Assembly: GCA_037042915.1 (NCBI GenBank)
Contig: CM073200.1
Coordinates: 2,972,832-3,036,831, forward strand
DNA: 64,000 bases
From: Auricularia sp. M13
Lineage: Eukaryota > Basidiomycota > Agaricomycetes > Auriculariales > Auriculariaceae
Reading direction: 5' to 3'
In this document: positions 1 to 7,057 of the stretch, piece after piece
Position numbering within the stretch: position 1 is the first letter of the stretch
Layout: the number at the start of each line of letters is the position of its first letter
The notes under the pieces: generated by a model
What the model saw: only the letters and a program-made list of their open reading frames with translations
Told to the model about the DNA's origin: nothing
The model's database searches: none
Program-made: the position numbers and the translations under genes

Positions 1-481
1 ATGCACCTTCAAGATTTTTTTTTGGCCTGAAAAAACTCACACAGGCGCTGTCTCTATGTATGTGGTCAAGTTAAGGTAATTATGAAGAGTAATCGATCTA
101 AGGCCGTCAACATTCTACCTTCGAGGTACATAGCTTCCAATACAGCTTCAGAACTTCGCTGAGGGGCACAAATCATATGAAGTAGGCCCGTAAAAATGCT
201 GTTGTGAATTCGATGGGCAGTCGTCGCAGCTTTACAGGCATCCGGAGGAGCGAAGCCGTTATGAAAGAAGGTGACATTATGCCGCCGTGAAAACAGTGTG
301 AGACAAAATGTTAGGTTTTTATAGGAGCTGCCGTTAGGTAGCGGTAATGTGAGAGAAATGGGGGCGCGAGCAAGAGCGTGATTAGAGGTCGGTTACCAAA
401 GAGGCAATCCTCCCGGAGGCTGTTTGCAAAATCCCATTGGACCGGCATTCGGGCCGAGATTTTTCACTGTTTCAACGGAAG
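1..481. other. Left-edge stretch, no gene seen
   Basis: No convincing coding region, RNA gene or repeat was found here. The sequence is AT-richer than what follows and ends where the first direct repeat of the retroelement begins at 482. Confidence 0.5.
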
Positions 482-578
482 CTAATGGGCTACGTGCCCT
501 CAATCGCAACAAATGAGCTTTTAGCGCGGGTGTACTGGGCCGCGTGCCCCCCGCAGTGTATTGGAGTGGTAGAAGAGC
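482..578 (+). repeat. 97-bp direct repeat B, outer copy
   Basis: Matches 856-952 over its whole length, starting CTAATGGGCTACG and ending AGAAGAGC. It is the terminal B2 unit of the minus-strand element. Confidence 0.9.
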
Positions 579-632
579 GCCGTAAATACACTGGGGTACA
601 TGCAAAGGATGGAGAGATGGGGAGGACGGTGG

Positions 633-855
633 GTAACGCAACGATACGATACGGCGCGGCGAGCGCAAAAACGGATGGAGAGCAAGCGAGGCGCGACGTG
701 CGCTTAAGAAGTGGCCGATGCGCTGTCGGCAGCGATCGGGCTGCAGCGCGATCATCGGGCCGAGGAACGTGCGCATCGGGCGCGGTGCATCGTGCACATT
801 GTTGCAGGTGGGCCGCGTGCCCATTAGACTGCTGAAACATCCTGCTTAATCACGA
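633..855 (+). repeat. 223-bp direct repeat A, internal copy
   Basis: Matches 2468-2691 with one single-base indel, starting GTAACGCAACGATACG and ending TTAATCACGA. It directly abuts the next 97-bp repeat unit at 856. Confidence 0.9.
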
Positions 856-952
856 CTAATGGGCTACGTGCCCTCAATCGCAACAAATGAGCTTTTAGCG
901 CGGGTGTACTGGGCCGCGTGCCCCCCGCAGTGTATTGGAGTGGTAGAAGAGC
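856..952 (+). repeat. 97-bp direct repeat B, internal copy
   Basis: Same unit as 482-578, lying directly against repeat A, so A2 and B1 together form the internal junction expected of split direct repeats. Confidence 0.9.
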
Positions 953-1044
953 TAATAGATGGGGAGTGGTTGGAGAGGCTATAGTGAGAGAGAGGAAAAC
1001 CGAGTGAAAGGAGGTGGAGTGATGTGAGAAACCACGACAAGAAA

Positions 1045-2445
1045 TCACGAGGAAGGTTCGGGGGTGAGGTGCTCGTCGAGAGCTGTGGCATGGTCCACGG
1101 CCGAATGACCAACGTTGTGGCAGATGCTGCAAACGTGCGCATGGCGGCACTGCGGGTGCGCGCAGCGATTGCCGTTGAAATTCTTGCAGATCTGGCCCGA
1201 CGGTCTCCAGCGAAGATTAGACTGCGGGCCAGGGACACTGGTGTTGGCGGTGCCGAAGGCACCCTGGAACGGAGCGAATGAGGGTTGGACGATGGCCGCC
1301 TCAGCGCCGAACGACCCTAGCGTGCGGTCCGCTGTCGAGCGGTGACGGTTCGTGTCTGCAAAAGTAAGATTAGCATGGTTTGCGACCTCGCTCCGGATCG
1401 CGGCATCTGCGGCGATGACGCGAGCGTGATGATCCTTGTGCGTGGAACGGAAGAGGTCGCCGATGAATTGCCGGTATGTGTCGAGCTCGGACTGGCGATG
1501 GGGATAGGCAAAGAGCACCGCAGCGCACCAGTCGTCAAACGCGTTCTGCCAGTCGGATTGATCGGCGACGACTTTGATGAGCTCTGGGGCATTGAGCATG
1601 ATGGAAACATTGTCGTTGAGGCGGTGCGAGGTACCGTCACTCGCGCGTGTGGCGAATCTGCGCGCGAGGATCTTGCCGAAATCAATGAATCGGTCGGCGA
1701 GGATGCCTTCCCAGAGGTCGTCGGGGAACGGTGGGGCGAAACCGATAAGCAGGAGGTCGCGTTTGGCGCGCTTGAGATCCGCTAAGTAGTTGTCGCGGAT
1801 TCGGAGGGTTTCGCGGACGCCGGGTGCGAGAGTGCCGAACGTGCGGGCGTGTCTGAAGCCGGCAGAACTGCGCTTGTATGGGCGCCTGTCGTCATCGTCG
1901 GGGTCAGAGTCGTCATCGGAGGATGCCCCGGCGTCTGCGAGCGCACGCGTGCGCTTGCGAAGCTCGTCAAGGCGAGGCGGCGGTATCGGATTTCCGCCTC
2001 CAACACCGAGAGCCGCAGCGCGAGCTGCTCCTTCCTGCGCGGCACGACTCTTGTGGAAGTCGTGGTTGTCCATGCGGGCGAGGAACTCGTCGAAACCGAA
2101 CATGGGTAGCTTGCCTCTTTGGAGGTACTGCATGCATTTGCCGATGGCGACGGCCTTGGTGAACTTGCCGGCGCAATAGTCGTCAACCGTTTGCATACAG
2201 CCTTTGAGGGCGTCTTGCTCGGCCGTTGAAAGACCGGTGGCTGCTGTCGCGGCTGATGTTGCTGCTGCCGCTGCGATGGCTGCGCTTGCGGGATTGCTCG
2301 AGACTGCTGGTGCGGCTGGAACCGGGGCGGTGGCGCCGAGCCCTGCGCTCGCGGGACCAGTGGCTGTCGAAGGGACGCCCGGAACGGATAAGGCTGGAAC
2401 CGTGGGCTGGCCGGCTGGCTGCGCTGACGGTGGTGCATCGGGCAT
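1045..2445 (-). CDS. Gag-like protein with CCCH zinc finger (Ngaro-type ORF1)
   Basis: A 466-residue product from the first ATG (2445) of a longer open frame that extends into repeat A. The N-terminal ~120 residues are Ala/Pro/Ser-rich and low in complexity; a middle part (~190-400) is alpha-helical in composition. Near the C-terminus is a C-x7-C-x4-C-x3-H finger (CKNFNGNRC..CRHAH) followed at once by a C-x2-C-x4-H-x4-H knuckle (CSICHNVGH). Such C-terminal fingers are common in basidiomycete retroelement gag-like proteins, where they would bind the element RNA. No polymerase, protease or recombinase domain is present. The frame is open throughout, so translation may still be possible. Function is inferred from the fingers and the flanking repeats only. 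Confidence 0.65.
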   Translation of the reverse strand: MPDAPPSAQPAGQPTVPALSVPGVPSTATGPASAGLGATAPVPAAPAVSSNPASAAIAAAAATSAATAATGLSTAEQDALKGCMQTVDDYCAGKFTKAVAIGKCMQYLQRGKLPMFGFDEFLARMDNHDFHKSRAAQEGAARAAALGVGGGNPIPPPRLDELRKRTRALADAGASSDDDSDPDDDDRRPYKRSSAGFRHARTFGTLAPGVRETLRIRDNYLADLKRAKRDLLLIGFAPPFPDDLWEGILADRFIDFGKILARRFATRASDGTSHRLNDNVSIMLNAPELIKVVADQSDWQNAFDDWCAAVLFAYPHRQSELDTYRQFIGDLFRSTHKDHHARVIAADAAIRSEVANHANLTFADTNRHRSTADRTLGSFGAEAAIVQPSFAPFQGAFGTANTSVPGPQSNLRWRPSGQICKNFNGNRCAHPQCRHAHVCSICHNVGHSAVDHATALDEHLTPEPSS

Positions 2446-2467
2446 TCCGAGAGGAATAGAAGAAGTA

Positions 2468-2691
2468 GTAACGCAACGATACGATACGGCGCGGCGAGCG
2501 CAAAAACGGATGGAGAGCAAGCGAGGCGCGACGTGCGCTTAAGAAGTGGCCGATGCGCTGTCGGCAGCGATCGGGCTGCAGCGCGATCATCGGGCCGAGG
2601 GAACGTGCGCATCGGGCGCGGTGCATCGTGCACATTGTTGCAGGTGGGCCGCGTGCCCATTAGACTGCTGAAACATCCTGCTTAATCACGA
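2468..2691 (+). repeat. 224-bp direct repeat A, outer copy
   Basis: Matches 633-855 apart from one extra G. It bounds the element at its 5' side when read on the minus strand. Confidence 0.9.
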
Positions 2692-6095: not shown

Positions 6096-6348
6096 AACTG
6101 CGGAACAGCGTCGGAACCCGCCAAGTCATGAGTACCACTGAGCACACCGAGCTAAGTCGTTTGCTTTGCCACTTGGCATAGCTCATCCATGGGATGACTT
6201 GAACTTAAGTTAAGAGTTTGCACACCTTTCAAGACTTACTGGCAAGACTTAAGTGTAAAGACGTACCATTGACTGAGCGGGAAGAGTTCAAACTACCTTC
6301 AAACAATCAGGTCGAGAACATATCAAAGTATTACAGGTGCAAGCGAGA

Positions 6349-7057
6349 TCAAGACATTTCGACATCTTCGGAGTGTTCAGGATGCTCTAGTGGCACCATG
6401 GCCTGACGAAACAGGTAGTCCACATGAGTCTGCGCGTAAGCCCGCCAGACTTCCTTCTCAAACGCGAGGAACTCGGCTTCACCGGGGAAAACAGCGGGCG
6501 GCGACGTGATTGAGACGCGGGGCCAGGTGGAAACCAAAGCATGGAATGCAAGCAACGAGTCGATGCGGAGAGTCCACTCCGGCGCGGTCAGCGGGCTCGC
6601 CGTCGTTGGCACAAAACTATTTGAGCCCCAGATCTTGAAGATCATCTCCTGGCGCTCCATGTTCGACTGTGCGTTGAGCTTGACGTCGTCGCGATAAAGT
6701 AAACGCAGCTTGTCGTCAAGCAGGGCGAGCTCCAGCCGGAACGACAGCTCCGTTACGTCCCAGGCAATGAGGGCACGCTCCTTGTCGGACGGCCAGCAAT
6801 ATGCACGACTGGCTTCCACATCGTCCGGCGGATCATATGGCGTGAGCTCCTTGTCGTTGAACATCATGATGCGCTGCGGCTTGAGCGCGTCGCGCACCGT
6901 CGACACAAGAGATGACGACGAGCGCGGTACGGAACCCAAAGGCGCAGATGACACACTCGATGACCCGGATGACGCTTGCGCTGTCGAGGAAGACGCAGTG
7001 ACGATGGTGTTCATGACCGGCACCTGCGCCTGCGTAGGATTTGATTGGGAGGGCGGC

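What the first reader, a model, noticed from the sequence alone, without database searches (positions are those of the whole stretch)
482..2691. Miniature Ngaro/DIRS-type element with complete split direct repeats but only a gag-like ORF
The A1-ORF-B1-A2-B2 order of two repeat pairs (224/223 nt and 97/97 nt) is seen directly and matches the split-repeat design known for tyrosine-recombinase retrotransposons. The body is too short for reverse transcriptase or recombinase, yet the zinc-finger ORF is intact. A trans-mobilised derivative that keeps only its gag is unusual: most known non-autonomous forms lose coding capacity altogether.
Basis: partly seen in the sequence, partly recalled or inferred. 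Interest (0 to 1): 0.75.

Follow-up and report, generated by a model that had tools for sequence, protein, structure and literature searches.

The report
Gag-only satellite of Ngaro retrotransposons
A small fungal jumping gene keeps the unusual split ends of its larger relatives and one intact coat-protein-like gene but no copying or inserting enzymes, so it most likely spreads by borrowing those enzymes from another element.

Summary
Observation confirmed to the base. Window 482-2691 is one inserted element with two split direct-repeat pairs in the order A1-gag-B1-A2-B2, read on the minus strand. Three complete copies lie on three contigs of this 52-Mb genome, with five short derivatives. Repeats differ by 0-1 change within a copy but by 6-9% between the window copy and the other two. 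Seven of eight fetched empty-site paralogues run gap-free across the window junction, so no target duplication; the eighth is too diverged to judge. Two enzyme-bearing Ngaro-type elements here have the same repeat layout. Gag is open in all three copies and under purifying selection (dN/dS 0.12-0.15). No other element with these ends was found; the nearest full element has a 38-40% identical gag. Best reading: a gag-only, non-autonomous Ngaro-type retrotransposon mobilised in trans. Plant TR-GAG elements are the known analogue; in the listings and passages I saw there was no such form among tyrosine-recombinase retrotransposons. Movement, RNA intermediate and partner are inferred.

The parts
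482..2691 (-). Complete inserted gag-only element (2210 bp), read on the minus strand
   Evidence: boundaries fixed by 7 of 8 fetched paralogous empty sites (the eighth uninformative)
2468..2691 (-). A1: first split repeat (224 bp), at the gag side
1045..2445 (-). gag-like ORF, 466 aa, with CCCH and C-x2-C-x4-H-x4-H zinc motifs (by eye); 38-40% identical to the gag in front of RT and YR at C8:1.09 Mb
   Evidence: purifying selection
1090..1188 (-). zinc-motif segment of the gag
   Evidence: sequence; coordinates computed by hand from the ATG at 2445
953..1044 (-). short stretch between gag stop and B1; no pol or YR hit here even at E 10
856..952 (-). B1: internal copy of the 97-bp repeat, abutting A2
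633..855 (-). A2: internal copy of the 224-bp repeat (223 bp here)
579..632 (-). spacer between A2 and B2; two enzyme-bearing elements of this genome have one too (68 and 121 bp)
482..578 (-). B2: terminal copy of the 97-bp repeat
482..490 (+). terminal motif CTAATGGGC; its exact inverse complement lies at 2655-2663, 28 nt inside the other end (candidate recombinase-recognition arms, hypothesis)
   Evidence: 6 of 20000 shuffles as good
2655..2663 (+). GCCCATTAG, inverse complement of the opposite terminus
487..499 (+). one of six near-palindromes GGGCNNCGTGCCC (starts 487, 537, 810, 861, 911, 2646); these are all the plus-strand matches in the 64-kb window
   Evidence: plus strand only

Best explanation
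A non-autonomous, gag-only retrotransposon of the Ngaro type. It keeps what is needed in cis: both split-repeat pairs, with an internal A2/B1 junction that can serve as template for the joined ends, plus one intact gag. It lacks RT, RNase H and the tyrosine recombinase (YR). Proposed cycle: the element is transcribed from A1 towards B2; its own Gag packages its own RNA; RT and RNase H of an autonomous Ngaro copy it; the A2/B1 junction allows a circle with closed ends; a partner's YR inserts the circle without target duplication. Shown: anatomy, several copies, copy-specific repeat identity, insertion of the window copy without duplication, purifying selection on gag. Inferred: RNA intermediate, circle, packaging in cis, enzymes in trans, and which element supplies them.
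For: Three complete copies with different flanks. Within copies the repeat pairs differ by 0-1 change; between the window copy and the others by 6-9%, as expected if repeats are renewed at each transposition. No target duplication at the window copy: 7 of 8 fetched empty sites gap-free at the junction. The C9 copy lies in a Ser/Thr-rich frame that is open over 176 codons when its flanks are joined. Two elements of the same genome with pol and YR ORFs have the layout A1-ORFs-B1-A2-spacer-B2; Pfam gives RNase H-like PF13456 (above cut-off) in the C7 pol and PF00589 (below cut-off) in both YRs. The nearest full element (gag 38-40%) shares the core of the 97-bp repeat just downstream of its YR gene (score 51, maximum of 100 shuffles 23). 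gag: no stops, both indels in the ORF multiples of three, dN/dS 0.12-0.15 at dS 0.35-0.43 for window against C9 and C10; 46-47 amino-acid-changing codons against about 97-99 expected under a context-matched neutral model, minimum of 1000 runs 78-84. The repeats diverged by 6-9% raw, much less than synonymous sites, so the ends are probably constrained too.
Against: No element with RT or YR carries the same outer ends in this assembly, so the partner is unidentified or uses diverged ends. The 224-bp repeat and the spacer have no detectable counterpart at the ends of the nearest full element (scores not above the shuffle maximum). That element is a single copy, without a second repeat pair and with RNase H in another frame than RT. 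The C6 and C7 elements' gags were not found by the window gag, so detectable gag homology reaches only the C8 element. No Pfam RT match in the pol proteins tested, and no [YF]xDD motif in the C7 pol ORF. Only three complete copies, two of them 98% alike, so selection rests mainly on one deep divergence; about 1.2-1.3 new stops were expected by chance there, so lack of stops alone says little. Pfam gave no match for the gag and the structure model was useless (mean pLDDT 40). No expression data.
Confidence: 0.86

Rival explanations
1. Gag was not maintained by selection inside gag-only elements: a full-length autonomous parent with the same ends (in other strains, or lost here) repeatedly donated gag by template switching or repeatedly gave rise to the deletion form, so the selection signal belongs to the parent.
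For: Only three complete copies; recombination between packaged RNAs is common in retroelements (recalled); no population data.
Against: All three copies have the same body structure with only small gaps, so one ancestral deletion is simplest. No parent with these ends or with a gag above 40% was found in the assembly.
Confidence: 0.25
2. The element moves only as DNA: a partner's YR excises and inserts circles (Crypton-like satellite), with no reverse transcription; the repeats stay identical through site-specific recombination.
For: A YR alone suffices for DNA circles (recalled). Short A-u-B and A-B derivatives exist.
Against: Internal A2/B1 split repeats and a gag under selection make best sense for an RNA template; the enzyme-bearing relatives have pol ORFs with RNase H-like matches or stretches.
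Confidence: 0.07
3. A domesticated host gene: the gag serves the host, and the repeats are leftovers.
For: Intact ORF, purifying selection.
Against: Three complete copies at unrelated sites, each with its own matching set of split repeats; one copy lies in a reading frame; host retention does not predict repeat homogenisation.
Confidence: 0.04
4. A TRIM/LARD-like LTR element or a tandem of two solo repeats that mimics the split design.
For: The left 374 bp (B2-spacer-A2) look like a terminal repeat and occur alone at two other loci (C2 whole, C6 truncated).
Against: The right end carries only A1; the internal junction is exact in all three copies; insertion without target duplication; two YR-bearing elements have the same order.
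Confidence: 0.02

Closest known systems
Autonomous Ngaro elements (tyrosine-recombinase retrotransposons; split direct repeats A1 ... B1-A2-B2 as described in PMC9210276 and PMC4157794, passages seen)
   Same: Repeat order and exact A2/B1 adjacency, spacer between A2 and B2, zinc-motif gag at the 5' side, insertion without target duplication; direct comparison of repeats with two elements of the same genome
   Different: No RT, RNase H or YR; 2.2 kb instead of about 5.6-5.9 kb
TR-GAG elements (gag-only LTR retrotransposons of plants; PMC8704663, abstract and passages seen)
   Same: One ORF, gag, between functional ends; enzymes must come from elsewhere; transposition of one reported in the Arabidopsis ddm1 mutant
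   Different: LTR ends and DDE integrase chemistry with target duplications (recalled); here split repeats and no target duplication
PAT and Kangaroo elements (split direct repeats; PMC3266345 and PMC4157794, passages seen)
   Same: Split direct repeats; Pat1 gags have zinc fingers
   Different: Belong to the DIRS group with a methyltransferase domain; Pfam showed none in the relatives' proteins tested here (the C6 pol was not tested)
Hypothetical protein AURDEDRAFT_163614 of Auricularia subglabra (P0001)
   Same: 58% identical over 66% of the gag, same zinc motifs and a similar C-terminal end
   Different: 345 aa; whether RT follows in that genome could not be seen

Membership tests
Ngaro retrotransposon | Split direct repeats A1-ORF-B1-A2-B2 | tested here: met
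   same layout in two enzyme-bearing elements of the genome
Ngaro retrotransposon | Integration without target-site duplication | tested here: met
   window copy: 7 of 8 fetched empty sites gap-free, eighth uninformative; open frame across the C9 junction; no empty site found for C9 or C10
Ngaro retrotransposon | Reverse transcriptase and RNase H encoded | tested here: not met
   single ORF; no pol homology outside the gag/pol overlap; hence not an autonomous Ngaro
Ngaro retrotransposon | Tyrosine recombinase encoded | tested here: not met
   best YR hit in the element E 0.16
Ngaro retrotransposon | gag related to the gag of YR retrotransposons | tested here: met
   38-40% identity to the gag in front of RT and YR ORFs at C8:1.09 Mb; no detectable similarity to the gags of the C6 and C7 elements
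Ngaro retrotransposon | No methyltransferase domain (against DIRS/PAT) | tested here: inconclusive
   cannot be judged on a gag-only element; Pfam shows none in the C7 pol, the C8 RT part and the C7, C6 and C8 YR ORFs
Ngaro retrotransposon | Circular DNA intermediate, RNA template | not testable with these tools
   needs expression and circle data
TR-GAG (LTR, gag-only) | Single intact gag ORF | tested here: met
TR-GAG (LTR, gag-only) | Flanked by two full LTRs with target duplication | tested here: not met
   split repeats and no duplication
Domesticated gag | Single locus without transposon ends | tested here: not met
   three copies with full ends at unrelated sites; synteny across species not testable

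The most novel reading that the evidence does not exclude
A long-lived two-component retrotransposon: a gag-only lineage that persists through selection on its own gag in cis (its Gag preferentially packages its own RNA) while it takes RT/RH and recombinase from other Ngaro lineages that recognise it through only a short end core. The gag-only form would then be a stable satellite, not a dying deletion product, and the first TR-GAG-like form among tyrosine-recombinase retrotransposons.
Probability: 0.4. Interest if true: 0.68.

Novelty: new variant of a known kind. Interest (0 to 1): 0.52.

Why it matters
Non-autonomous elements show what a transposon must keep in cis. This one suggests that for Ngaro elements the split repeats and a gag are worth keeping while RT, RNase H and recombinase can be borrowed, the same division that plant TR-GAGs show with different ends. 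That convergence would point to Gag as a cis-acting (self-packaging) protein in both groups, which is testable. The element also offers a clean empty site and inverted end motifs, useful for asking where a Ngaro recombinase binds and cuts.

Tried and rejected
LTR-type reading: rejected by the missing target duplication and by the right end lacking B. Segmental duplication of one insertion: rejected, flanks differ between copies. Mutation-spectrum origin of the third-position excess: rejected by a context-matched neutral simulation for the window against C9 and C10; for C9 against C10 the observed 13 changed codons (expected about 21-22) equals the lowest of 1000 runs, the number of such runs not being counted. 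Autonomous partner with the same ends: none found; nine and ten pattern hits with up to 3 mismatches all lie in the known places (six and seven of the eight). Gag-only copies in the other Ngaro family: of 24 matches listed to the C7 gag, 14 (query included) cover about 70% or more of it; 12 have substantial pol matches beside them, one has interrupted pieces (C10:1805761) and one only a 148-aa start (C3:502552); neither was read further.

Led nowhere: protein relatives of the frame at the C9 copy (1231 candidates, none below E 0.001); paralogous empty sites for the C10 and C9 copies (only their own flanks matched); Pfam on the gag; AlphaFold model from two sequences (mean pLDDT 40.2), so no fold search was run; gag searches with one sequence and with an alignment found only the A. 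subglabra protein among 7995 and 7996 scored candidates. A blastn step in the script failed on its input file; only the pairwise alignments of that call are used. The species was not identified; the A. subglabra relative is a hint only.

Literature: searches (open-access PMC text only). They listed many papers of which I saw titles and abstract starts; passages were seen of seven: PMC3783388, PMC3266345, PMC12477816, PMC8498967, PMC9210276, PMC8704663, PMC4157794; no whole paper was read. Six phrases of the kind 'non-autonomous Ngaro/DIRS' gave 0 papers. Repbase was not searchable.

Full report
What is there. Window 482-2691 holds two pairs of direct repeats, 97 bp (482-578 and 856-952, identical) and 223/224 bp (633-855 and 2468-2691, one indel), around one 466-aa ORF on the minus strand (stop 1045-1047, ATG 2443-2445). 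Along the ORF the order is A1-gag-B1-A2-spacer-B2, with A2 and B1 abutting at 855/856.

Copies. A DNA search of the genome gave nine match rows at eight places: three structurally complete elements (window on C8; C9:3507289-3509517; C10:331624-333850) and five short ones. By sequence the short ones are B2-spacer-A2 units (C2; C6, truncated) and internal-deletion forms with little or nothing between the two ends (C1, C3, C10:323876). The flanks differ from copy to copy. Within copies the 97-bp pair is identical in all three; the 224-bp pair differs by one indel (window), one substitution (C9) or nothing (C10), leaving aside two boundary bases outside the repeat. Between the window copy and C9 or C10 the same repeats differ at 6-9% of positions plus indels, the spacer at 2-4%, the body at about 11%; C9 and C10 are about 98% alike. 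Repeats are therefore renewed together, copy by copy, as retrotransposition through a split-repeat intermediate predicts.

Insertion. The window element sits inside a dispersed repeat. A search with its joined flanks listed ten non-self matches, each one alignment spanning the junction. I fetched eight. Seven are gap-free at the junction, with no base duplicated or lost that the insertion could explain; the eighth (L074) has a C-run there and cannot be judged. The C9 copy lies in a Ser/Thr-rich reading frame that is open over 176 codons across the joined flanks; no protein relative confirmed that frame, and no paralogous empty site was found for C9 or C10. At C9 the three bases CGA occur both in the target and at the element end; the window copy has no such overlap. 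DIRS1 is reported to insert at an identical 3-bp sequence without duplication (PMC3266345 passage).

Relatives with enzymes. Besides the three copies the gag finds one locus in the genome, C8:1095086-1096528, 38-40% identical. There gag is followed by an RT-like ORF with a YVDD motif, an RNase H-like stretch in another frame (by eye) and a tyrosine recombinase ORF (PF00589 E 5.6e-4, below its curated cut-off). Just downstream of the YR lies a stretch homologous to the core of the 97-bp repeat (alignment score 51, maximum of 100 shuffles 23); the 224-bp repeat and the spacer show nothing above shuffles there. This element is inserted in another dispersed repeat (its ends look like terminal inverted repeats; not tested) whose empty copies at C6:1517772-1517955 and C1:1085680-1085863 give its borders, about L013:5016-9946, again without a duplication longer than 3 bp; it has no second repeat pair. 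Among 24 RT- or YR-bearing stretches held, seven show direct repeats of at least 100 bp and 98% identity near the YR (most stretches do not reach both ends). For two of the seven I fetched the far side: C7 (A 125 bp, B 173 bp, spacer 68 bp, about 5.9 kb) and C6 (A 161 bp, B 126 bp, spacer 121 bp, about 5.6 kb) have A1-ORFs-YR-B1-A2-spacer-B2 with A2 and B1 abutting exactly. Upstream ORFs with cysteine/histidine motifs (gag by eye) precede pol in both. Pfam gives an RNase H-like match in the C7 pol ORF and PF00589 below cut-off in both YRs; no Pfam RT match and no methyltransferase; the C6 pol was not tested with Pfam, but it matches the C7 pol. The C7 pol has no [YF]xDD motif. The window element thus has the repeat design of these elements, with the enzymes missing.

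Selection on gag. All three ORFs are open, and both indels inside the ORF are multiples of three. Window against C9 and C10: dN/dS 0.12-0.15 at dS 0.35-0.43 (NG86 and YN00); C9 against C10: 0.22-0.28. Placing the same context-specific substitutions at random gives about 97-99 amino-acid-changing codons against 46-47 observed (minimum of 1000 runs 78-84). For C9 against C10 the observed 13 equals the minimum of 1000 runs. The repeats have diverged by 6-9% raw over the same period, less than synonymous sites, so the ends are probably constrained too. All three copies share one body structure, so the simplest history is a single ancestral gag-only element whose gag then stayed under selection; repeated donation of gag from an unseen parent is the main rival.

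Partner. The outer 21-nt and 26-nt end patterns, allowing three mismatches, hit 9 and 10 sites, all within the known copies, with no control hits. No RT or YR element here was found with those ends. In the other Ngaro gag family, 12 of 14 substantial gag loci (query included; 24 matches listed) have pol beside them and the other two have only pieces of it, so within this genome a clean gag-only form was seen only in the window family.

End architecture. In four of four families examined, the terminal bases at the B2 end recur as an exact inverse complement 28-47 nt inside the A1 end: window 9 nt, C6 7 nt, C7 6 nt, C8 6 nt (6, 43, 199 and 1357 of 20000 shuffles as good; the C8 case is not significant and its start was chosen with the motif in view). 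I read these as candidate recombinase-recognition arms; this is a hypothesis.

Literature. [quoted passage not shown] A survey of fungal DIRS and Ngaro elements does not contain the words non-autonomous or nonautonomous in its main text (PMC3783388, word search). Gag-only LTR elements (TR-GAG) are known from plants and one was reported to transpose (PMC8704663, abstract and passages). My searches showed no gag-only YR retrotransposon in the listings and passages that I saw; they cover open-access PMC text only.

Verdict. A real, recently inserted-looking, gag-only non-autonomous Ngaro-type retrotransposon family: a new variant of a known kind. Shown: anatomy, multiplicity, insertion without duplication at the window copy, selection. 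Inferred: RNA template, circle, packaging in cis, enzymes in trans.

Noticed in passing
L020 4290-6518 (G000:C9:3507289-3509517): The C9 gag-only copy lies in a Ser/Thr-rich reading frame (176 codons open when flanks are joined); a possible recent gene disruption.
   Followed up: partly
L013:5016-9946 (G000:C8, about 1.092-1.097 Mb): The nearest enzyme-bearing element is a single-unit form (no second repeat pair) nested in a dispersed repeat whose ends look like terminal inverted repeats; empty copies at C6:1.5178 Mb and C1:1.0858 Mb.
   Followed up: partly
L060-L064 (G000:C2:2586100, C1:5640350, C2:2544500, C1:5673400, C1:5503400): Short elements (about 255 bp where both ends match) sharing end sequences of the C8 element; by eye they lie in stretches that are nearly identical between C1 and C2.
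   Followed up: no
G000:C3:500348-501322 and 502552-503526: Two gags of equal score 2.2 kb apart beside one pol, apparently a partial tandem duplication of a Ngaro element.
   Followed up: no
window 232-481 plus 2692-2758: The host sequence of the window insertion is a dispersed repeat with ten other matches listed (69-95% identical); its type was not determined.
   Followed up: partly
window 487, 537, 810, 861, 911, 2646: Near-palindrome GGGCNNCGTGCCC occurs six times on the plus strand of the 64-kb window, each time in the element's repeats.
   Followed up: partly
L013 about 6300-6640: In the C8 element the RNase H-like stretch lies in a different frame from RT; whether this is natural recoding, an intron or decay was not examined.
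   Followed up: no
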